DNA of 64,000 bases from Corbicula japonica. Its lineage: Eukaryota > Mollusca > Bivalvia > Venerida > Cyrenidae. The notes under the pieces were generated by a model. The model ran no database searches. It was not told the origin of the DNA and saw nothing but the letters and a program-made list of their open reading frames with translations. The stretch covers positions 454,001 through 518,000 of the forward strand of contig JAZAYU010000175.1 of NCBI GenBank assembly GCA_038501625.1. The letters run 5' to 3'. Below, piece by piece: positions 3,260 through 60,699 of the stretch; position 1 is the first letter of the stretch, and the number at the start of each line of letters is the position of its first letter. A program made the position numbers and the translations under genes.

Positions 3260-4497
3260 CGAGGGTTGTTCAATATATAATGAGACTGTCCTCATATATT
3301 TTTATTCTGACATGAAATATATCAAAATTTGGTATCATTATTAAATATAACTTATCCTTGATAAGAATACCGGCTTTGGTAGAAAAAATATAATGCGACA
3401 TAGAAATTATGATCATTCCAAAAACCATAGTAACGCGTTATCGCCCCGTCCATTCTGTATTATAAAGACATACATTATAATATAAAGTAAAGTAAGAACC
3501 TATTTTAGCAATTACATAAAAATCCGCCAATAATTTGTTCGCTATATCAATGACCTCATATGAAAAAATGACGTCATTTGGTTGTAAAACGTTGAAATAA
3601 TCAACATTTGTTTACGGTCACCCTTACACGTTGTCACTTAAAAATGATGACACAAGAACGTATGGAAGTGCGGGCAAACATTAAGTTTTGTATGAATTTA
3701 GGTAAATCGGCAACGAAAACATTTACAATGTTACAAGAGACTAAGGGGAAAGACAGTGCTTGTCGTGTGTTAGTATTTAGATGGCACAAACAGTTTTCTG
3801 AGGGACATACAGCACTAAATGACGAGCAAAGGTTCGGTAGTAAGAAGTCCGTGACAGCGTCATGCGTAGCGTCAATTCAGTCAGCGCTTGATATGGACCG
3901 ACGTTTAATGGTGCGGGAGCTTGCCGAAATTGCTGAAGGAGCTTTGGAACTGCGCATCGCATACTGACAAAAGATTTAAGCATGAGAAAAATTAATTAAA
4001 TATTTAATACATAAAAGTGTTGCATAATTCCTATAGAGGTTCAGTAATATCGTATATATAAGTATATCGGCGTTTTTCTATATAAAATCATAATAAAAAC
4101 ATAAGAATTCATTTATTTAGTTTTAAGACATTTATAATTCCTGCATTAATATTTATCAGTTAATAAGTCATTAATTTGTGGGCTGCACGCCACCAATGAT
4201 GTGTTCTGCATTCGGCAGCTTATTTTGAAAAGCTATGAATGTAACAAAACAATATAGCGACGTTTACAATGCGATCGACGTCGCTAACGTCGCGACATAT
4301 TTGTTGCCCGGGGGCGATGATGCAAACATGACCTTCTTATAAATGCTGTAACTTTAAAGCTGTTTTGTGGATTTTTTAAATATTTTCTGAATGTATTCAG
4401 AAATGAATGAACTTTGTTATTATCTATTGCATATTACCGTTAAATGTTTCAAATAAAAGATATGAACACAGTCTCATTATATATTGAACACCCCTCG
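3260..4497 (+). mobile_element. Non-autonomous mariner-family transposon with TA target duplication
   Basis: The ends form a nearly perfect terminal inverted repeat of about 29 bp: the left end reads CGAGGGTTGTTCAATATATA and the right end is its complement with one or two changes. Each end is flanked by TA (3258-3259 and 4498-4499), the standard mariner target duplication. The interior keeps only the DNA-binding part of the transposase (3644-3967). The region from 3990 to 4460 is AT-rich and shows no DD34D catalytic domain. Total length of 1238 bp is near a full mariner, so the catalytic half seems replaced or decayed beyond recognition. Confidence 0.9.
3644..3984 (+). pseudogene. Mariner transposase, N-terminal helix-turn-helix remnant
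   Basis: The reading frame from the ATG at 3644 contains RANIKFCMNLGKSATKTF and VFRWHKQFSEG, the first HTH of Mos1/SETMAR-type mariner transposases, followed by the second HTH region (DMDRRLMVRELAEIAE). The frame is lost just after AEIAE. The expected continuation (HRILTKDLSM) is readable in another frame at 3939-3984, so a small indel disrupts it. No catalytic aspartates follow. The protein would bind mariner ends but could not cut DNA. It lies wholly inside the element at 3260-4497. Confidence 0.85.
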
Positions 4498-5420: not shown

Positions 5421-5817
5421 TGCTAAGATGGCTCTGTGTAGTTTATAAATAGCTCGGTTTTCGCCTTGTTGCATACACTTTTTGCGGCACCTAATACAAA
5501 CTGAAAATATGTGTCGGAAATGGCAGATTAAATAAAATGGTTGCTCAAATTTACCGTGTTATCCTATAGTTAGTTCGAGAGCAAAGCCATCCACTGTAAA
5601 AGAAGTTCAACATACTTTCACTTTATCAATTTTAACAGTGTACTAATATGAACTAAGGCACTGCCTCTCTCGGAATCGACGAATTTAAAGAGATGTGCAT
5701 CGAATGTTTAACAGTAAAACAAAGAAACAAGTCATCATTTGTTGTTTTACTTTTTAACCAAAACTGATCAAGGTTGTAAGATGTATTATGAAGAGCTTTT
5801 GGTGTAAAACGACTTTT
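5421..5817. other. Intergenic DNA, nothing recognised
   Basis: No supported feature. Confidence 0.4.
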
Positions 5818-5997
5818 GCATTATTAATCTCTTCTTCTGCGGTGAGCGCTTATTTGAACAGCTGGTGTTACACGGGTTTATTGTTGTTTTACACAGAGTG
5901 GTTTTTTGCATTATTTATCTCTTCTTCTGCGGTGAGCGCTTATTTGAACAGCTGGTGTTACACGGGTTTATTGTTGTTTTACACAGAGTGGTTGTTC
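5818..5997 (+). repeat. Two tandem copies of a 90-bp unit
   Basis: The unit starting GCATTATTAATCTCTTCTTC at 5818 repeats at 5908 with only a few changes. Because 90 is divisible by three, an ORF (5788-6060) stays open through both copies and would encode a hydrophobic 30-residue repeat. I see no start context, family match or neighbouring exon that makes this a gene, so I list it as a tandem duplication. Confidence 0.85.
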
Positions 5998-11070: not shown

Positions 11071-11283
11071 TTTTGAGAGTCCGGAAAACAGACCCTTTCC
11101 CAAAGTTAACGGACCCATTCCCAATAGGAAATTTCTTCCACTTTTCCCAAATGAATCCACTGATAATTTTCAAAACATTAGAAACGGTGTTAACTTTCGC
11201 TTTACGGTGTATTTTGTTGATAAAAATTCCTAGAAGTTTCACGCGCAAAAATTTTCCCGATTCTAGCTAAGGTACTTTTCCCA

Positions 11284-11317
11284 CATCCTCGGAGACCCAG
11301 TGGTGATTCCGCTCGCT
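11284..11317 (+). repeat. Left terminal inverted repeat of the large transposon
   Basis: 34 bp identical to the complement of 19975-20008. After it the similarity resumes as CCCCTGGGACAATTAG beyond a short indel. Confidence 0.95.
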
Positions 11318-11463
11318 ACATCACCCCTGGGACAATTAGTTTGAATTTCATCGATTTACCGCTTAACGAATACTATCATTTCATTGGTTTCATCCTAATT
11401 TTCGGATGCGCGAGATCACCAATGAAAATGATCCTTACAAATCGCTTCGGTTAAACTGCCAAG

Positions 11464-13333
11464 ATGGAGGATTATTGTCGTTTAGCATGTGAAAAATTTG
11501 GTGTTTTGAATTTAAAGGATTTTCAACAAGAATGTGTGAAGCAATTAACGCGTAACAGGGACGTTTTCTTATCTGTGAAAACTGGAAGTGGAAAGAGTTT
11601 ATGTTATCAATCTTTTTTTATCATATGGCGTGCGATGAACGAAACATTGAAGTGTCAAGTGCTCGTGGTTACGCCGCTTATTTCTATAATGAAAGAACAG
11701 TGTGAATACCTTAATTCTCTCGGAATAAGAAGTACATATTTGGGGAAAGATAATTCAGAGGATTCTGATATCATTAATGAACAGTATGACTTTATTTTCT
11801 CATCGCCAGAAAACTTGCTAAATGTTTGTAAGTGGCGACAAATGTTGGAGAAAACGGATTCATTTCGCCTCATGGTTGTGGATGAAGCGCACACTGTTTT
11901 GCACTGGTAATTTGTGTGTTTTTTTTACATTAATAATTAAATCTATTTTAAATTTTATTTGCAGGTTCTTTATGATGTATATTTAAAAAAATAATTTTAT
12001 AGTTGTAGTGACTGTAGTGCATATAGGCACTTCCAACAGCCTTGCTATTGGGTTAACCCTTTAGCGACGTGGTTGAGGGCCTGGACTACCAAACTGGCGG
12101 ACCGGATTATTGTCTCCTCCAAGATTTACTTTATAGTTGACAAGCCGTCACCAGTGAAAAACTTTTTTCTGTCCTGTATTATATAAACATACATGTTTAA
12201 ATTAAGGTAAGAACATGTCTGCAAAAGTATATTAAGAGTAAAATAATTTTTAAAAAATATTCACATTTGGAATTAACAATAGTTATTCAAATTTTAATAC
12301 CGGAACAGCATATTTTTGCATCAAAACATGTCAAACAGTTTTGTTCTGGATGCTTTTTAGCATAGATAAATGTGTATGAATATGATGAAGGTGTTGAAAC
12401 ATTTATTTCTATTTCAGGGGAGAAGCTGGCAGAGATGATGAGCCCTTTCGTGTGTGGTACGGGAGACTGAGTGAAGCCCGTTCTCTAATCAAGTGTCCTG
12501 TTTTGCTTATTACAGCAACAGCAAACAAATCAGCACGCAGAAAAATACAGAAGAAATTTGCTATGCATGACTGTTGTGAGTTAATAGATAATCCAGACCG
12601 CCCAAATATTAAGCTGTTTGTACAAAAGTATAAACGAACTGTGCCCATTGAAAGTGTTTTAGAGCAGCTAATATATCTGGTTAATGAAAAGCAAGAGCTT
12701 TGTGACAGATACATAGTGTTTTGTCCATCAATTGCTCTTTGTAGCAAAGTATTTACAGCATTTAGACTGGAAATTGGTAACAAGAAGATAAAGCATGTTG
12801 AAATGTATCACTCAAAAACCACAGACCAAACAAAAGAAAAGATCAGGAAAGACTTGAATGACCCTAGCGGCCAAGTGCGTATCCTTGTTGCAACTAGTGC
12901 AGCAGGCATGGGTGTAAACTTTGTTGGAGTAAATTACGTAATTAATTTCGGGCCACCTAAGGACATGGATAGCTTTGTGCAACAGGTCGGGCGTTGTGGA
13001 CGTGATGGGACACAGGCTATGGCCATGTTAATTTTCAACAAGGCACAATGTCGGGGCTTGGACAGTGAAATGAAGGATTATGTAAATAATAAATCTTCAT
13101 GCAGGCGACAACTTATTCTGAAAACTTACAATGCAAAGTCGCCAGAACTCAAAAAACATTTGTGTTGTGATATTTGTGAAAGCTACTGCGATTGTAAAAG
13201 TGACCAATGCAAAACATTTGACTTCCCAATTGTAATTAGTGAACATGATCCTGAAGAAGTTTACTCAGACACAGAGTGTGATGAGAGAATCAGCAGTAGC
13301 AGTTCAAATGTGTCTGAAAGCGATACAGAATAA
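11464..13333 (+). CDS. RecQ-like superfamily II DNA helicase of the transposon
   Basis: Two exons, 11464-11906 and 12418-13333, joined across an intron with GTAATT donor and TTTCAG acceptor, give an uninterrupted 452-residue frame. An ATP-driven DNA-unwinding role is inferred from the motifs. These are a Q-like FQQECVKQL near 20-28, motif I TGSGKS 40-45, motif Ia VVTPLISIMKEQ near 68-79, motif II DEAH 140-143, motif III TATAN near 180-184, motif IV YIVFCPS near 246-252, motif V VATSAAGMGV and motif VI QQVGRCGRDG at 336-345. After this come cysteines in the pattern C(RR) ... CC..C...C.C at about 376-407, resembling the RecQ zinc-binding subdomain. An acidic, serine-rich tail follows. No HRDC domain is seen, and at 452 residues it is shorter than cellular RecQ proteins. 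The start has a good context (CCAAGATGG) also found at the transposase start. It ends in convergent orientation to the transposase. I expect it to act in transposition (strand unwinding or repair), which is inference. Confidence 0.93.
11907..12417 (+). other. Intron of the helicase gene
   Basis: Splits the W codon directly after the DEAH motif region (LHW|GEAG). The first 3 nt past the donor would give a stop (TAA), consistent with removal by splicing. No nested element recognised. Confidence 0.88.
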
Positions 13334-13591
13334 CAATGTCAATATTTAAGTGATATACTGGTAAAATATTTTACAAGCATGTAAGTGTTAAAAATATGGA
13401 AATATGGGAAAAAATAATAATAAAGAATCTTCACTTCTTCTAAGGCACTTAGTCTTTAACCTCTATGTCATTGGCTGAAGACTAAATGGTCCCAAGTCCA
13501 TGTAAAGCTGAGGGGAAGAAGTGTAAAATTATCATGAAAATTTAGCTTTATCTATTTAGGCAAAGTCTCTTGATGGCTGTTTTAATAGTAA

Positions 13592-13677
13592 AGTCCTATA
13601 GCTTAACTGGCAAAGCGGTCAGCATGACTCTAGTAAAGCATGATCTGACAGTTCCAGGTTCGACTCCTGGTAGGGTT
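13592..13677 (+). tRNA. tRNA-like sequence with enlarged anticodon loop (pseudogene or SINE head)
   Basis: The 86 nt can be folded as a cloverleaf. AGTCCTA pairs with TAGGGTT (with wobbles), GCTT with AAGC in the D arm, GTCAG with CTGAC in the anticodon arm, and CCAGG with CCTGG around TTCGACT in the T arm. The A box (TAGCTTAACTGG) and B box (GGTTCGACTCC) are close to consensus. The anticodon loop is 22 nt and contains a near-duplicated AGCATGA(T/C)CT word, so the anticodon cannot be assigned. It lies inside the large transposon just past the helicase gene. It is most likely a tRNA-derived insertion rather than a working tRNA. Confidence 0.55.
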
Positions 13678-13857
13678 TATAAACAGCTATCCCGAGATTG
13701 GGGGTCTATGAATTTACCAACTGGAATGTGCAAAGCAATACATGTATTGACCACCTCCTTCAGAGAGGGCATAATAAAACAAGCTTTAAAAAGTCATTTT
13801 CTAAGACATCTTCTTCAGGATCATGTTCACTAAATTGTCAACAACAGCAGCAAGTTC

Positions 13858-14225
13858 ACCATCATCATCAGCATTATTATCATAATTATCGATGTCACAT
13901 CTGCCACCGTTTCATCATCATAATCATCATCATCACTGTCATCATCATCATCTTCATCATCATCTTCATCATCACTGTCATCATCATGCCACAAGTTGCT
14001 TGGAAATGATGATCATAGTACATACTGCTTTTCTTAAAGTTCATTTTTCATCATCATAATTATAATCATCATCATCACCCCCACCATTATCAGGATCACT
14101 AAATCATTGTCACCAACACCACCCTCATCAACATTATTATCATCCTCATCATCATCATCAATAACAGCATCATCCTAAAAATTATCATCATCACCAGCAT
14201 CATCATTATCATCATTTGATCATCA
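13858..14225 (+). repeat. Imperfect (ATC/CAT)n trinucleotide repeat
   Basis: About 370 bp of interrupted CATCAT/ATCATC runs with ATT and ACC variants. It occupies the gap between the two convergent genes. The ORF across it is an artefact of the repeat. Confidence 0.95.
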
Positions 14226-14613
14226 TTTTGAAATTAAAGAGTTTAATTGGATATGTGATTATTATTTCCTATCCCTTTATGGATAAACAAAAAGTAGACA
14301 TTTTCTAATGATATAAACAAAGTTGAATTAGAAACAACAATTATGTAGGTTTAAAAAATGTATTCTGTCCTTTCACAAATTCACATACATGTAGATCCAA
14401 TTCATCACAATGTTAGACACAAAAAGTAATTTTCAAGATAGTCTGACATATAAAAAACATTGCACTTGCACATTTGAAATATGAAATAGGCAATGAACTA
14501 ATTAAGCTGTATATGTTATGGTAACACTATACACTGTATTAAATATTTTATAAAATTTCATTGTATTCATCCAATAGTGTTCAACAAATGCATGTACAAT
14601 CACATGACTGAAT

Positions 14614-17600
14614 TCATAAATACATATTTGCAATCTTTTTATTTTGATTGATCCATGTGTGAAGATTTTCAGCATCAATGCACTGTATTGGGTCCTTAAA
14701 CGTGCTAAAACTTGGCCATGTCAGTTCTCTAACCAAGCCTTGTTTTCTCAGGCACACAACCATTTGATGAACATCTTTACACTTGTCCACTGTTGGTCTA
14801 TCACCTTTAGATCTGGCTGTCTTTGTTGTTCTTATCAGTTGCTGTTTTATACTGTCAACAACTTGGGTTGTCATAGCTATTGTTTTAGCAGATTTGAATG
14901 ACTTATTTGCCCCTTGAGTGTCCAATTCTTTTTTTATATTATTGACTTGCAATTCAACGCAATTGTCATTGGGAATATTATTATGAACACCACCTTTTAA
15001 GTTAACTGTCATGTTCCATTTGTACTCAAACGATTCTTTAAACCCCAACAAGGATATGACATAACTAATCATTCGCCAAAGCCACTGTTTATAATGGGTA
15101 TGTTTAAGACTCGCATCATAAAGCCATTCAAAGTAGGCATTGGTGACAATTCGATCACCATCTCCTAACCTGTATGAATCAACAGTGTCACGAAATAGCA
15201 GTGCCATAAAAAGAAAATGATGCACAGAATTAGTGGCATCAATGTTGGTATTCACGGTGTGAAATTCCCAGTTATGTTTTGACCTTAGATGTTTTCTGAA
15301 GCATGCCAAACCTTTGTAAGATTTTTTACAAAAAGGACACTTAAATTCTCCTGTGTCACTCCTCATTGCATTCAGTTCAAGATCATCAGAGCTTAGTCCT
15401 TGCAAATCACTCCTTAGTTGATTGAAATGTGTACAGTCACAAATGTTAAGTTCATTCACAACTTTCGTAGCTACCCCATTTAGCCATTCTACCTTGCAAT
15501 CATCACTCATAAGATCAAGTAAGACTGGTGTTTTCGGCTGACCATCCATCATATCCATTTCCATTTGATCTAGGAATGTTCCGACAATGAAGGCATCAAG
15601 GACATCATCAATGAAGTGATGGTGAGGTCTGAAATGACATTAAAACTTTTACATATAAGCCATATCATGAAAAGCCTGCCTTAAGACGATGGTAACCAGC
15701 ATGGCTCCATATGAGCCTGTGCATTGGTACGGTCTTATCAGGATCTATGTGGTTTGCTATCAGACCGTATAAACATTGTACAATGTAGCACAGAACAACA
15801 TGGATCTTGATGAGACTGTGTGGGTGCACAGGTTTATCTTGAACCATGCTGGTCACAATTGCCTTAAGGTCCATTTTTTGCATGCAACTGCTCAAATACA
15901 TATTTCAAAATGTACACAATAACCGATGTATCAGTTTATTATATTTGGTCCTAAACAGTGCATTACAGTTTACATAATAGGTATATTGAAACAATTTGGG
16001 CCTCAAGTTATTTTAACTACTTTTACTAAAAGACAGTCTGTTCAGGATCATGTTTGCTATAGAACACTTCAAATTATTTTTTATCTGATGATGGATCCAA
16101 AATTTCCAGCAAATGTATGGCACCTTTTATTTTCTTCAATTGGCACAATAAATTGTCAACAATTTAACTAATAGTTTTAACTTAATAGTTTTAATAGTTT
16201 TATCTACCTGAACTTCTTAACAACATCATCAGGACCAGTTACATCTCTGCGATTTACCACATTGCGTAAGTTGTACAGTGAGCCTTGGTCCCTTGCACTG
16301 CCTTCTTTATAGAACAACTTGTATATGACCTGTGTATGAATGTTAGAGTGCAGACAGTAAATATCTGATATCAGCTTAAAAAAGCAAAAGTAATTATACA
16401 AAACAAATTTTAAATAGAATGAAAAGCAAACAAAAATGCTCATTACCGTATTTTTTTTAACAACACACCAGTTCAGTCATAACTAACAATTTTTAAATGA
16501 TTGGAAGAAAGTATTTCTCAATCCTTCAATGCAATACTCCATAGTTATTTCATTGTCATCTTGATTTAAAGGTGGTATCCGACAGTTTGAGCCTATTTTT
16601 TGTGCTCAAACAACCAAGTTAGTTTGTGTTTTCCAGATAGATGTTGTAAATGCTGTCAAATAATTTCCTTTATATGTGGAAAGAGTGGTGTATAAAGCAC
16701 AATTAGTTCTTTAAAACAGGTATTTCCTGTCTTAGCCATGCTGCAGAGTTAGCTATTTTTAGACTACGAAAGCAATGTGACTACCCACTGTTGTATTTGC
16801 GGGCTGTGACATCGATAGATATCTTTAGAAAGAGTTTGTTGTATGCTTGTTTGTAGACTTGAATATGTATTTGATATAGGAAAATTGACAGATACCACCT
16901 TTAAGTCTAGTGAACTGTTATCAAAACAATAATAAACACATAACAGTCCAAAGTAAAAAAAAATAAATGGATTTAAATTCAGTAACTGTTGGTACGCAAC
17001 TACAATATAAGTCAGGGGAATAACAAGTGGCAAATAGCAAAAGGCAACGAAGAAACTAGCGAAGGCAGAAAGCAAGTAGAAAGTTAGAAAGCAGTAAACA
17101 ATTTAAGGTAAAACAAATGAATACAATTGTAGTAACAAAAATACTAACATGAACTGTGAACAAGAACTTCTTCAACAACATCCATTACTGATAGAAAGTT
17201 GAATTGTCTGTGTAGCCCTTCAGGTCTGTGTATTATTCCCAAGACGCAGTCAAATGGAGTGTCATTATTTTGCATTGCTTCCTGTGCTGTAAATGCTCGG
17301 ATATTAGTCAGAACATCTCCTCCAAACACAACCTTTTGGCTTATGTCATTGTTTAAATGTGGTACAACCATTTCATGCACTTTTTCCAGAATTGTTATCA
17401 TGCCAGTGTTAGAATTTTCACTTTCATCGATCAGATCACAGTTCAAAACTGTAGATTTTTTCTTAGTTTTTTCCATAAAAGGATGAGTGATGTACTCAGG
17501 ATAGTGAATGTTTGCTTCCTGTATGAATTTAATATATTTAAGTAGAACCTGGGAAATGTGGAATACAAAGTTCTTTTTCACAGACTGCATTTGTTCTACT

Positions 17601-19835
17601 GATGGAATGTAATTGTATGACAGAATATTCATTATACTTTCTTGAGCAGGTGGAGGTCCTTGGATATTCAAATCCTCATATGTTACACGTCGTTGCTTCA
17701 CCATAGTGAGGAACCAATGTAGACTTTTTCTTTGTTTGTCAATGCTCATAACCTTAGGTGCAATAGAAATATCCAAATTGTCACCAATTATTTCTATGGT
17801 ACTTGTTGCCCTTTCCTTGAAAGCATCTATCAGGTTGCCCACCTTTTGTTGCTGAACCTCCATAAGCATTTTCTTTTTATTTCTAACACTGGTGGCAGAC
17901 ACAGATAAACCTAGATCATGAATGATGTTCAAACCCTGTAACAAAATGAATATATGTTGTTGGCCTTTATTAAAATATGTTCTTTGGAGTTTGCAGAAAA
18001 AAGTTTAAAAAGGATGTCAGCAGGTTGGATGCAAGTAATTTTAACATGTAAAGATGCAAGTCATTTTAACATATAAATCAAACCTACCCCTGCAAGATTT
18101 GTTAAAAAAAATATGAACATAATTTAGTCTTTTTATCTTTTCAAAAGTTAACAAAAATTTACTTTATCAAAAACTGCCACTTGTTTACCTGCTTATTCAA
18201 GCCAGAGCTATCTAGTACCAAGCCAAGAACAAACTGCAACAGGTTTAGGAATTGACATCTGGTATAGAGCAGGATGCTCACAGCCACTGCTAATCTAAAC
18301 TCTTTTTTCTTCTTTCCCACTACCACTGATCTAAGCACATTGGATAGTGTAGGTAGCTTTTCATTGATCGTTTTCAATTGATCTTCCCATTTAAATCCTA
18401 TTAAGTCATCTACACTTGTCACTTTAAATGAAGTTGAGGATCTCTTTGACAGCTGTGCTACTTCATTGGTAATTTGTTTCCCCACAAATTTGGTAAATTC
18501 ATTTCTATAACTCTCTTTCTTAGATAAATGTTTGATAACAGCATGATGAGTTCCTGCATTCATAATATTTCTCACTACTGCTTTATCAGCATTGTCTGTG
18601 ATAATTTTTGATCGCTCTATATTTTTGGCAGATTTCACTGTTATCTGTAATGAAGAAATAAAACAATCATTTGCAATGGCAAATTATAAAAATATACTTG
18701 GATGCAGTCTTTCTTGATGTTTCGAATAATGAAATATATAATTATTTTAATTTTAAAGGTTTTCACTATCTTCTATGGCTGGCAGAAATTGACATGTTTT
18801 ATTTTTAATTTCCTCAAAATATATATTATAATATTAAATAAAGATATTTTGGAAATGAAACATAATGTTAATTATCTAATAAATTATATATATTATAATA
18901 AAAAGTGATGGTGTATAAATACTTGCCTTTACATTAAAATCTTTTTGAATTGTTGTTTGAGTGCCTATTTCCACAGTAGTCCGAACTTTGACTGGCGTCT
19001 TGGATGCAGTCTTTCTTGGTGTTTCGAATAATCTTTTTTTACTTTTTGGCGTAACACCACTAGGGGATCGTAGACTACAGGGTCGTTTCATACAATAACC
19101 AGGACCTGACAGAGAAGAAGAGAATTCTAAGAAATATATTTTACAAATAATGAAATAAAACTTGTGAAATAATGTAGAAAAAGTGTTTGAAGTACTTTGA
19201 AAAAGCCTTTTCGGCGAAATATTAACAATAAAAAGAGTAAACTTACAGAGTTTTGTTTGAGGTCCTTTTAAGGACTAGTACAAGTAATGAAATATATAAT
19301 TAATTTAATTTTAAAGGTTTTCAATATCTTCTATGACTGGCAGAAATTGACATATTTTTTTTTATTTCTTCAAATAAAGTTTAAGGCAATTTACAATGCA
19401 AAATGAATAAAAAAATATTTATAGAAATATCATTGCTATAAGCTGTGGCTATAATGCTACTTTTTATAGCTAAATCAATAAATGAATAGATGACTGTACT
19501 GTTGCTTAGTTTGATTGTAAACAAAACTTACTACTTCTGGGTATAGTCGCCGTCTTGAGCATCGCTTGAACACCCGGCATGTCCCTTAGATTGGAAATAT
19601 GTTTTTTTTGTTCCGTGACAAGTTTTTCCACTTTCACTTTAACTTCGGCAGCAAAGTAGCTAGCCCGGTTCAATTTATTGGTGCATTGTTTACAAGAAAA
19701 CCCTGTTGGGTTAATATTTATCTCGTTGTATAACTCCCCCCATCTTTCAAAAGCCGTACTTGATGTCAGTGATCTATAGTCTCTATTTTTTATTTCAGAA
19801 TCACACAGCTGACATTTAATCATGGGCGCAGCCAT
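14614..19835 (-). CDS. Putative transposase of the large transposon (Academ-type), six exons
   Basis: Minus-strand exons: 19835-19532, 19105-18927, 18644-18189, 17935-17149, 16364-16208 and 15628-14614. Phases agree at every junction and give an open frame of about 965 residues. Four introns are GT-AG. Intron 2 appears to use a GC donor (AAG|GCAAGT). I prefer the ATG at 19835 for its CCAAGATGG context; another in-frame ATG lies at 19847. Residues 8-51 hold paired CxxC motifs (CQLC, CKQC), likely a zinc-binding domain. Exon 4 has GDNLD (D near 365) and FGGDVLT (D near 520), which look like the first two acidic residues of a DDE-type nuclease of the GDQLT-containing kind. The third acidic residue is not clear to me. 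Exon 6 contains a C2H2 finger, CPFC at 725-728 with H741 and H746, placed after the second aspartate. I infer that the protein binds the ends and cuts DNA. It might match a DUF6589-like family, but this is from memory. Confidence 0.82.
15685..15863. mobile_element. MITE with TTAA target duplication, in transposase intron 5
   Basis: TTAA at 15681-15684 and 15864-15867 flanks inverted ends in which GACGATGGTAACCAGCATGG matches the complement of the right end, GGCAATTGTGACCAGCATGG. The interior has CTTATCAGGATCTATGTGG and GATCTTGATGAGACTGTGTG words resembling the foldback family at 35-40 kb. Non-coding, about 180 bp. Confidence 0.8.
16570..16900. mobile_element. MITE with TTAA target duplication, in transposase intron 4
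   Basis: Ends AGGTGGTATCCGACAGTTT and, in complement on the right, AGGTGGTATCTGTCAATTTT. Flanked by TTAA at 16566-16569 and 16901-16904. 331 bp, no coding capacity. The TTAA duplication suggests mobilisation by a piggyBac- or Kolobok-type transposase. Confidence 0.88.
18696..18805 (-). repeat. Partial duplicate of exon 2 plus intron 1 sequence, inside intron 2
   Basis: 18696-18730 repeats most of a coding stretch of exon 2 (TTGGATGCAGTCTTTCTTG, also at about 18999-19030), and 18724-18805 repeats 19284-19365 of intron 1. In transposase orientation the copy reads intron-1 piece then exon-2 piece, so it derives from a duplication that lost the DNA between them. It does not interrupt the gene, being intronic. 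Confidence 0.85.
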
Positions 19836-19974
19836 CTTGGTAGTCATTGACAACCCATTGACTTATGAGAGCGGTTATCTGATTGGACCGCACGCTATCA
19901 CGCTTCGTATCGATTTTCCGGCGCCAGATTCAAAGCTTTTCTAGCTAATTGTCCCAGGGGTTAATGAAGCGAGC

Positions 19975-20008
19975 AGCGAGCGGAATCACCACTGGGTCTC
20001 CGAGGATG
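19975..20008 (-). repeat. Right terminal inverted repeat of the large transposon
   Basis: Complement is identical to 11284-11317; directly followed by the 9-bp duplication CTTTTCCCA at 20009-20017. Confidence 0.95.
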
Positions 20009-20370
20009 CTTTTCCCAAAATGGCTAGGAAAACCAGTGAGGGTGTGTAAATTTTTCAGCAAAGCACATGTGTTTTCTTAGAATAATGAAATATTCTCAAG
20101 TTGTTTACAAATTTCAATTTGATTTCCGGAATTTCGGTCGATTTCCATTGTATTCAGAATGTTTCTGATGTAAAGATAACAGCAGCATTTTATTTTTACC
20201 CAAATCAGAACAAGGCTGAAAGTGCACCTTTTTTCCCGCTGTATGTTAAAAATTATGTAGAAACAAAATAATTGAAGGTGAAGTTTTTTACACAAGATAC
20301 AGGTGATTATGAAAAGCGAGAGAGCGAGCAGGACAGTAAGAAAGAGATCGAATGGAAAAAAAGAAAATTG

Positions 20371-47315: not shown

Positions 47316-48430
47316 CTACCATGGTGGTGTCACCACAAACTGTCCATTTTCTTCCGTGCAAATAATTCTTACAGTTCTTTGGTACAAATCGAGAATCGTC
47401 GGTGTCATAAAGGCTTCATCCACTCGATCTTTTAACATTAATAAAATCGGCATCCTCCTTTCAAAGGCAAAAGCCAATTCGTTTTGACAATATGCACTTT
47501 GACAAAATCCATCTGATACCACAAAGACCAGGACAGAAGCTCTTTCAAAACACCGAATCATTTCATCTAACACTGCACGTCCAGGGCGAAAATGCATATC
47601 ACCTGTGCAGACTAGACATCGATCCACCCCTGTCATTGTCTTAAGTCTTTCAATAAAGTTACCAATAATATTTTTGTCCACAAACTCTTCATCCCTGCTG
47701 CTGAAAGACAAAAACACTGCAAACTCGTATCGTCCTTCGCCTCCGTTGAGATTAAGGATAACATTTGCCCTGTTGCGCCGCGCTTTAATCTTTTGTCTAC
47801 ACTTGTTGGCAGAAATTGTTGATACAACTATAACAAATGTCCCCGTGCAAGAGCATATGATTGCAATCAATACGTAAATGTGTCTTTGACATATTGAATG
47901 AACTTCTTTAGCAACTGCTTGATCTATTTCTACTCTTTTCCCATCTTCGTTCTGGCATTTGAGTCATTCCATTGAAAAGCTTAGAGGCTTTGGACATAAA
48001 ATCCAAGAAATGCTGGTCTTAGATTCACATAACGAACAGTCCAGCGGGTTTCCACCAAGTGAGATTGTTGATTTAATACTACGTATAATTGTCGAACAGA
48101 TGTTGGAAATTATTTAATATCCGTAGAGAGTTTTCGTCCAAAATCTTTATTCTTTATAGGCGAAGTTTAGATATCTTAATCTGTTTAGGGGTTTTAGTGT
48201 AAAACGTATTTGTTGCAATTTATTCTCTGACAGGTCTATAGTTTCAATGTTAGGAATATTTGTAAACATCTTTGGACGAACGGATATTATTTTATTGTTT
48301 AATAAGTTAATATATCGAAGGGAATGCACATTTGTTAAAAGATTCTACCACATTGCTGGTTGATTCGATGCCATTTTACCAAGCTGGTTATTGGAAAAAT
48401 CAATATTCTCTTAAGCCGGCAAACACGAGA
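47316..48430 (-). pseudogene. Toll-like receptor, 5'-truncated and broken
   Basis: Read on minus from 48430: LRR sequence (ENIDFSNNQLGKM; HSLRYINLLNNKIISVRP; IETIDLSENKLQQIRF), a C-terminal LRR cap (SLGGNPLDCSLCES, ISWILCPKPL), a transmembrane segment (IAIICSCTGTFVIVVSTI, about 47816-47870) and a TIR domain. TIR box 1 is YEFAVFLSFSSRDEEF, box 2 ends FRPGRAVLDEM and box 3 is near FVVTPPW. Damage: a stop near 48341, frame changes near 48150 and 48080, a TGA at 47964-47966 in the cap and a TAG at 47316 where similarity seems to continue. Only the last few LRRs are present. A Toll-like receptor would sense ligands outside the cell and signal through TIR adaptors; this copy cannot. The TIR-plus-membrane part remains open for 184 codons. 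Confidence 0.85.
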
Positions 48431-56172: not shown

Positions 56173-56420
56173 TAATACGTTAGGTATAACGTACTCCGCG
56201 ATAAAATACCATAAACATGATAATATTGATCAAAATTATTGTAGTGTATTGAGAAAATAATAGATAAATTGTAATTGTGACATCGTCGAGCAACGCACTT
56301 TTGCAACAAGTTGTTGCGTATTACATGTATCACGAGTTCGTCTCATAATTTCGATACAAAAGAGAGTATTCATTTTTGTTCATATAAGGACTAAATCAAT
56401 GTTTGTTTGTTTGTTTGGGT

Positions 56421-56735
56421 ATTTAAAACATTAAGATTGTTTAAAGTAAGCGTGATGCCCTTAAGACTTTACTACATGTAAGCGTGATGCCCTTCAGACT
56501 TAACTCACTTTAAATAACACAACATGTTTTCTATACTTAACACTTGCAAACATCGCTTCCAGCTTAAATTATAAAATTTATTTAAAACATTAAGATTGTT
56601 TAAAGTAAGCGTGATGCCCTTAAGACTTTACTACATGTAAGCGTGATGCTCTTCAGACTTAACTCACTTTAAATAACACAAAATGTTTTCTATACTAAAC
56701 ACTTGCAAACATCGCTTCCAGCTTAAATTATTGTC
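56421..56735 (+). repeat. Two tandem copies of a 159-bp unit
   Basis: ATTTAAAACATTAAGATTGT starts at 56421 and again at 56580, with near-identical units. Inside each, GTAAGCGTGATGCCCTTAAG is itself repeated once as TGTAAGCGTGATGC(C/T)CTTCAG. A (GTTT)n run precedes the array (56401-56417). Confidence 0.92.
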
Positions 56736-59490: not shown

Positions 59491-60258
59491 CTAAACAACC
59501 AGTGTTTGTTCATCACTGTTTTGTGATACTGCTCTTACCGCGCGACAATCTTTGTTTTTACGACCGCAGTTTGTACATTTGCGCGTCGGTCGCGCATGAT
59601 CTACCTCCATAGGTTCGTGCGAAGCTGTATTGTCATCGGAGTGATGACCTGTTCTATTATGAATTCGCTTCAGAAAATTCTGTTCGCGTAAGGCAAGATT
59701 AACGGCATCACTTAATGTTGCCGGATTACCGCGAATTAATTTTGCCCTGACGGCATCACTTATCAGGCCATCAGTGAACTGGCCTATCAGAACGCGTTGC
59801 ATTGGGTTTGCTACGTCTAAGTCACCCTCACAGGCGTCCTTAGCTAGCATCAGAATGCGTTCGCCATAAGTGGCTATGTTTTCGCCTTGCCTTTGCCTTA
59901 CATTACGGAGTAATTTCAATGCATACTGTGGGTCCGTTATTTCACCATAACGTAACCTCAACTCCGCTGTCAGTTGCTCATACCGGACCGAATTGTTATC
60001 AGTAAGATACCTTTTTAAGAATTCGCAAACCGGTCCCGCTGATGATTGAAATGTGACCTTAATCTTGCGATTTTCGTCGCAGTTGTGAATAATAAAATAC
60101 CTCTCTAATTCGAGAATCCAATTTTGGAATTCTTGCGATTTTCCCGCGAATCGCGGCAACTGTGTTAACGCGGTATTCGCGAAAATTGTCTCTGGCAAAT
60201 TGAGTAAACTTTCTGTCAAAACTTGGAAAGGTGGCGGCGATTGTGATCCGGTCGCCAT
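59491..60258 (-). CDS. Gag-like protein of the LTR element
   Basis: 255 residues from an ATG in good context (AAAATGGCG). The central region LPRFAGKSQEFQNWILELER, then LKRYLTDNNSVRYEQLTAEL and LRNVRQRQGENIATYGERIL, is the retrotransposon Gag capsid type seen in Ty3/gypsy elements. Near the C-terminus PMEVDHARPTRKCTNCGRKN precedes KDCRAV: only half of a CCHC zinc knuckle remains (no histidine), so the interior deletion probably ends there. The protein should form the particle that packages element RNA; loss of the full knuckle may reduce RNA binding. The frame is otherwise open. Confidence 0.85.
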   Translation of the reverse strand: MATGSQSPPPFQVLTESLLNLPETIFANTALTQLPRFAGKSQEFQNWILELERYFIIHNCDENRKIKVTFQSSAGPVCEFLKRYLTDNNSVRYEQLTAELRLRYGEITDPQYALKLLRNVRQRQGENIATYGERILMLAKDACEGDLDVANPMQRVLIGQFTDGLISDAVRAKLIRGNPATLSDAVNLALREQNFLKRIHNRTGHHSDDNTASHEPMEVDHARPTRKCTNCGRKNKDCRAVRAVSQNSDEQTLVV

Positions 60259-60699
60259 TTTGTTTCAGACTTAAATAGAAGCTAACCTAAATTATTTGGC
60301 AACAGGTCAAGAACAAAAGGTAAAGTAAATTTTCTGACCTGGCTCCGGTTTAGGCTGCCTCTTCTTGCTCGCTTCCTGTTGACTTTATTTGCTTTTCTTC
60401 AGGACCCCGGAGAACTCCCCAATACAGTGCGACCTGCAATTTTAAATATACAATATTTAAATATTTCAAAATTTAAAATATATTATTTTAAACAATAATG
60501 AAATAAAAAATGATATGGGGTCCTCGTCTCCGTCGTTGCCCTCGTCTTGTGGTCGTCTGGTCCTGGTGGAAGGAAACGTCTGCAACAAGGAAAAGCGTTT
60601 GACTGTTTTGGCGGTCTGCTACTGCCCGTGAATTGCGACTCTGCTATTGGAACTTCCGGAACTCCAAGAATCCTGGCTACACGGCTCCAAAACGACGCA
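60259..60699 (-). other. 5' leader of the LTR element
   Basis: Non-coding stretch between the 5' LTR and gag in element orientation; would hold the primer-binding and packaging sites. The plus-strand ORF at 60547-60741 is a shadow. Confidence 0.6.

What the first reader, a model, noticed from the sequence alone, without database searches (positions are those of the whole stretch)
11284..20008. Intact-looking two-gene transposon carrying its own RecQ-like helicase
The sequence shows matched 34-bp ends, a perfect 9-bp target duplication (CTTTTCCCA) and two convergent multi-exon genes whose spliced frames are open. Helicase-carrying cut-and-paste elements are rare; the AcademH lineage (Academ superfamily) is the one I recall with this layout and duplication size. 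Here both partners and both ends survive together, which makes it a candidate active element.
Basis: partly seen in the sequence, partly recalled or inferred. Interest (0 to 1): 0.88.

Follow-up and report, generated by a model that had tools for sequence, protein, structure and literature searches.

The report
Clam transposon with its own helicase
This is a real cut-and-paste jumping gene in what is most likely a bivalve genome; it carries both its transposase and a RecQ-like helicase and has spread full-length and miniature copies, and it looks like a well-preserved new family of a kind (AcademH) that is already known.

Summary
Confirmed. Window 11284-20008 is an 8,725-bp DNA transposon with perfect 34-bp inverted ends and an exact 9-bp target duplication. 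It encodes a 452-aa RecQ-type helicase (2 exons) and, convergently, a 944-aa DUF6589 protein (6 exons); a relative's model resembles the DDE transposases Hermes and P element. The family has moved: two other long copies sit at unrelated sites with 9-bp duplications, and 33 of 35 miniature (~292-bp) copies have 9-bp duplications, 30 perfect. Of four long copies found, only the window copy has both frames open. DEAD-helicase and DUF6589 hits pair repeatedly in this genome (16 of 48 DEAD hits; 0.05 expected); none of 3 XPG nuclease hits does. Architecture and duplication size fit the published AcademH lineage; comparison with reference Academ proteins was not possible. Present activity is open: a Glu invariant in 24 of 24 relatives is Ile in the three copies that carry the site. 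A tRNA-Ser-like sequence and a weak twister-ribozyme-like motif lie between the genes.

The parts
11275..11283 (.). 9-bp target-site duplication, left copy (CTTTTCCCA)
20009..20017 (.). 9-bp target-site duplication, right copy (CTTTTCCCA)
11284..11317 (+). left terminal inverted repeat, 34 bp (extends with interruption to 11345)
   Evidence: chance control
19975..20008 (-). right terminal inverted repeat, 34 bp (extends with interruption to 19939)
   Evidence: a 7-bp stretch at 19966 is absent from long copies C16 and C23
11464..11906 (+). helicase gene exon 1 (motifs I, Ia, II; motif labels recalled)
12418..13333 (+). helicase gene exon 2 (motifs III-VI, Cys-rich RecQ-type zinc region); stop at the end
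19532..19847 (-). transposase exon 1, ZAD-like zinc domain
   Evidence: ZAD by fold of a relative; no Pfam ZAD match of the window protein itself
18927..19105 (-). transposase exon 2 (ends at a GC donor)
18189..18644 (-). transposase exon 3
17189..17935 (-). transposase exon 4: GDNLD and FGGDVLT motifs, start of DUF6589
16208..16329 (-). transposase exon 5
14611..15628 (-). transposase exon 6: C2H2 finger and NDNxVE motif; the stop codon is at 14614-14616
11284..11439 (+). left part retained in the ~292-bp miniature copies
19865..20008 (-). right part retained in the ~292-bp miniature copies
13453..13519 (+). weak twister-P1-ribozyme-like motif 3' of the helicase gene
   Evidence: below Rfam's curated score
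13591..13679 (+). tRNA-Ser(UGA)-like sequence between the two genes
13805..14288 (.). TCA-rich stretch present in the window copy, absent from C16, C23 and C17

Best explanation
An autonomous cut-and-paste DNA transposon of the AcademH type in what is most likely a bivalve genome. Inferred mechanism: the DUF6589 protein, a DDE/RNase-H-fold transposase with an N-terminal ZAD-like zinc domain and a C2H2 finger between the second conserved Asp motif and the last Glu motif, binds the inverted ends, cuts the element out and joins it to target DNA with a 9-bp stagger, leaving the 9-bp duplication. The element-encoded RecQ-type helicase is presumed to unwind or help repair DNA around excision or after insertion, taking the place that a nuclease has in AcademX. 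The same machinery mobilised ~292-bp internal-deletion copies in trans. Shown here: ends, 9-bp duplications at many independent sites, two open gene frames, fold of a relative, miniature copies, recurrent pairing of the two gene types. Inferred: exon junctions, catalysis, role and polarity of the helicase, present activity.
Against: No Academ reference protein could be compared, so the superfamily name is by architecture. Foldseek alone gave no match at E <= 0.001 (best P element, 0.051). In the transposase, I529 replaces a Glu that is invariant in 24 of 24 relatives, in the three copies that carry the site. Only 4 long copies were found and 3 have broken genes. One end-bearing place (C2, L033) is a rearranged piece without a duplication. 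No expression data. The searches behind the pairing count scored only 50 of 348 (DEAD) and 102 of 129 (DUF6589) candidates, and some of the 16 places look like duplicates of each other.
Confidence: 0.88

Rival explanations
1. It is a helicase-carrying element of another superfamily (KolobokH-like) that acquired RecQ independently, not Academ.
For: KolobokH also encodes a RecQ helicase, and one rhodophyte Kolobok encodes it on the complementary strand (PMC9587614, passages seen).
Against: [quoted passage not shown] Duplications here are 9 bp without common sequence, whereas Kolobok makes TTAA duplications (recalled). The transposase is DUF6589.
Confidence: 0.05
2. The family is already dead: the window copy looks intact only because it is young; its transposase is inactive (the conserved Glu is lost) and the miniature copies were moved by a different, unseen source.
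For: I529 in place of an invariant Glu in the three copies carrying the site; 3 of 4 long copies broken; miniature copies are on average more diverged (2.6% pairwise) than the long copies (0.9-1.9%).
Against: Three long copies sharing the change sit at separate sites, so elements bearing it were moved after the change arose (possibly in trans). Both frames of the window copy are open.
Confidence: 0.35
3. The two genes are host genes and the repeats around them are coincidental.
For: Relatives are annotated as ordinary genes in other molluscs, amphioxus and hemichordates.
Against: Same ends and 9-bp duplications at independent sites; recurrent pairing of diverged gene pairs in one genome.
Confidence: 0.01

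Closest known systems
AcademH (Academ superfamily; Kojima 2020, Mobile DNA 11:15, not held, known here through passages of PMC10045372 and PMC10799480)
   Same: Transposase plus helicase; 9-bp duplications (9 or 10 bp reported); inverted ends; found in an animal
   Different: Nothing that excludes it was found. Features seen in this family that I could not look up for others: ~292-bp miniature copies, twister-like motif and tRNA-Ser-like sequence between the genes. Not compared with reference sequences.
AcademX
   Same: Presumed same transposase superfamily (recalled)
   Different: AcademX makes 3-4 bp duplications and carries a nuclease; here 9 bp and a helicase, no nuclease family among the Pfam hits
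KolobokH
   Same: Transposon with a RecQ helicase
   Different: [quoted passage not shown] TTAA duplications (recalled)
Hermes (hAT) and P element transposases
   Same: Overall DDE/RNase H fold of a relative's model
   Different: 8-bp duplications (recalled), no helicase gene (recalled); sequence identity in the structural alignments 7-10%

Membership tests
AcademH | Element-encoded SF2 (RecQ-like) helicase | tested here: met
AcademH | 9- or 10-bp target duplications | tested here: met
   window copy and C23 exact, C16 8/9; 33 of 35 miniature copies at 9 bp with at most one mismatch
AcademH | Terminal inverted repeats | tested here: met
AcademH | Transposase homologous to Academ transposases | not testable with these tools
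   Repbase and the primary paper are not held; the protein is DUF6589; no paper of the held library contains that name
AcademH | DDE/RNase H-type transposase | tested here: met
   [not shown]
AcademX | 3-4 bp target duplications | tested here: not met
AcademX | Encodes an XPG-like nuclease (that it is XPG-like is recalled) | tested here: not met
   no nuclease family among Pfam hits of either protein; 0 of 3 XPG_I hits of the genome lie on a contig with a DUF6589 hit
KolobokH | TTAA duplication (recalled) | tested here: not met
Helitron | No inverted ends, no target duplication (recalled) | tested here: not met

The most novel reading that the evidence does not exclude
The element carries, besides transposase and helicase, a functional self-cleaving twister-like ribozyme and a tRNA-Ser-like processing signal downstream of the helicase stop codon, so that a DNA transposon trims its own helicase mRNA or blocks read-through between its two convergent genes by RNA cleavage. 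The core motif is found only in this element in its genome (4 of 4 hits in 1.07 Gb lie in its four long copies; the patterns were written after seeing the match) and is unchanged in the four, but its covariance score is far below Rfam's cut-off (27.7 versus 67.2) and the stretch on its own prefers another fold.
Probability: 0.12. Interest if true: 0.75.

Novelty: new member of a known kind. Interest (0 to 1): 0.45.

Why it matters
Helicase-carrying cut-and-paste elements are a little-studied lineage. Here one genome offers a copy with both genes open, damaged sister copies, a miniature family that fixes the ends and the 9-bp duplication, and many diverged helicase/DUF6589 pairs. That makes the question of why a DDE transposon needs its own helicase testable. 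It also links Pfam's DUF6589, a family of unknown function, to a transposase fold.

Tried and rejected
Host-gene explanation: rejected (copies at unrelated sites). KolobokH, AcademX and Helitron: see membership test. First exon 4/5 junction: replaced after comparison with a relative. Relatives in viral contigs: 57 pattern matches, none confirmed. Sequence search of solved structures with the transposase profile: the 60 rows shown of 244 are nearly all zinc-finger proteins matched at the C2H2 finger. Twister-like and tRNA-like motifs in other DUF6589 places: none in 11 of the 20 places held, several of which are short stretches that may not reach the region between the genes. Primary AcademH paper: not held. 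The DUF6589 name is absent from the held library. Five papers of the listing name AcademH, none about bivalves by title; I read passages of two of them, and passages of PMC10294476, PMC9587614, PMC8905726, PMC9004415 and PMC12730594. Searches were otherwise seen as listings only. Not done: genome-wide searches with the right end, the helicase protein, transposase exon 6 protein, transposase exon 4 DNA and a tRNA pattern (all asked, none answered), and an empty-site search (not asked).

Full report
OBSERVATION. The 34-bp ends (11284-11317 / 19975-20008) are perfectly complementary and are flanked by CTTTTCCCA on both sides. The longest such inverted match in 100 Markov sequences of the same composition was 16. 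The + strand gene has two predicted exons (11464-11906, 12418-13333; GT-AG) and gives 452 aa. The - strand gene has six predicted exons between 19847 and 14611 and gives 944 aa, with one GC donor. The end of exon 4 was corrected with the Mercenaria relative P0001.

COPIES. DEAD hits in the window's own genome led to two other long copies. C16 and C23 begin and end at the same bases as the window copy and have duplications CTCAAAACT/CTAAAAACT and GGTCCTACC/GGTCCTACC. Substitution differences are 1.20% (window-C16), 1.53% (window-C23) and 0.88% (C16-C23). A fourth, C17, stops matching near window 14699 and differs by 1.87% over 2,509 bases; its right part was not found within the 9.9 kb fetched. 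A search with the left 180 bases scored 40 of 68 candidates: 4 long copies, 35 miniature copies and 1 rearranged piece, so the true number may be higher. All 35 miniature copies were fetched. 34 of them are 291-294 bp long and consist of the left 156 and right 137-144 bases of the element; L042 has a rearranged left end. 30 of 35 have a perfect 9-bp duplication, 3 have one mismatch (L043, L062, L063), L051 has 8 bp, and L042 none. Among the flanks of the 37 loci compared, one weak similarity was seen. Mean pairwise difference of 34 miniature copies is 2.6%. 36 target 9-mers show little sequence preference and a GC of 35%, equal to the window.

INTACTNESS. Of the four long copies only the window copy has both frames open. 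C16 has an open helicase but a frameshifted transposase, and C23 is broken in both. C17 has a broken helicase, and most of its transposase was not found. Between window and C16 the helicase has 2 amino-acid and 9 silent changes (ratio per site 0.06) and the transposase 10 and 4 (0.66), small numbers; the other pairs gave 0.19 and 0.38 (helicase), 0.59 and 1.05 (transposase). The transposase of the three copies with that exon has Ile at position 529 (window 17300-17302), where 24 of 24 relatives have Glu. This argues against calling the copy active without a test.

PAIRING. 16 of 48 DEAD hits lie within 10 kb of one of 79 DUF6589 hits, with 0.05 expected; 12 are convergent, 3 divergent and 1 on the same strand (from, which scored 50 of 348 and 102 of 129 candidates). 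Some are likely duplicate or allelic places, and two belong to this family. The 3 XPG_I hits of the genome (11 of 11 candidates scored) lie on contigs without a DUF6589 hit. So helicase-carrying DUF6589 elements are a varied group in this genome, not a rarity.

NAME. PMC10045372, citing Kojima 2020, states that AcademH makes 9 or 10 bp duplications and AcademX 3 or 4, and relates this to helicase and nuclease (passage seen). PMC10294476 reports Academ as expanded in bivalves (passages seen), and PMC8905726 lists Academ-1 in Mercenaria (passage seen). The element therefore works like, and is most probably a member of, AcademH; homology to reference Academ transposases remains untested.

PASSENGERS. 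Between the genes, 3' of the helicase stop, Rfam finds a tRNA (42.4 bits, cut-off 29) that ARAGORN reads as tRNA-Ser(UGA), and a twister-P1 match of 27.7 bits (cut-off 67.2; E 0.013 for the whole element). Both are in the four long copies, the tRNA weaker in C23 (35.7 bits). The 461-bp region was found only four times in the genome, by a search that skips very common words, and the twister core only four times with up to 1 or 2 mismatches. 11 other DUF6589 places showed neither. The tRNA folds into a cloverleaf-like shape but no better than shuffles (z -1.03); the twister stretch folds only slightly better than shuffles (z -1.57) and into another structure. I treat the tRNA as a probable old passenger and the ribozyme as an unproven lead.

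Noticed in passing
window 13453-13519 (+): Twister-P1-like motif, 27.7 bits versus cut-off 67.2, in the four long copies and nowhere else in the genome by core pattern.
   Followed up: partly
window 13591-13679 (+): tRNA-Ser(UGA)-like sequence inside the transposon, above Rfam's cut-off, in the four long copies.
   Followed up: partly
window 13805-14288: TCA-rich stretch in the window copy, absent from C16, C23 and C17; its borders repeat 'CATTTTCTAA', and its start holds a ~34-bp inverted copy (88%) of the helicase 3' coding end.
   Followed up: partly
transposase residue 529 (window 17300-17302, -): Ile where 24 of 24 relatives have Glu, five residues after the second conserved Asp, in the three copies with that exon.
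   Followed up: partly
window 15679-15869: 76-nt inverted repeat (75%) in the last transposase intron, also the place of a weak miRNA-model match.
   Followed up: no
L033 (C2:14882100-14892000, reverse): Rearranged piece: left 122 and right 58 bases of the element with extra terminal repeats and no duplication.
   Followed up: no
P0025: A JGI protein 100% identical to the helicase over 67% of its length on a 4-kb contig, so a near copy seems to be in a public metagenome.
   Followed up: no
window 47316-47963 (-): Open frame with a TIR domain and, by eye, a membrane-like stretch.
   Followed up: no
window 59491-60264 (-): Gag-like open frame, PNMA/Ty3 capsid matches below cut-off.
   Followed up: no
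window 5814-5993 and 56420-56731: Near-perfect (98%) tandem duplications of 90 and 159 bp.
   Followed up: no
window about 1-850 and 3640-3960: By eye, a LINE reverse-transcriptase remnant and a mariner-like transposase N-terminal fragment; not searched.
   Followed up: no
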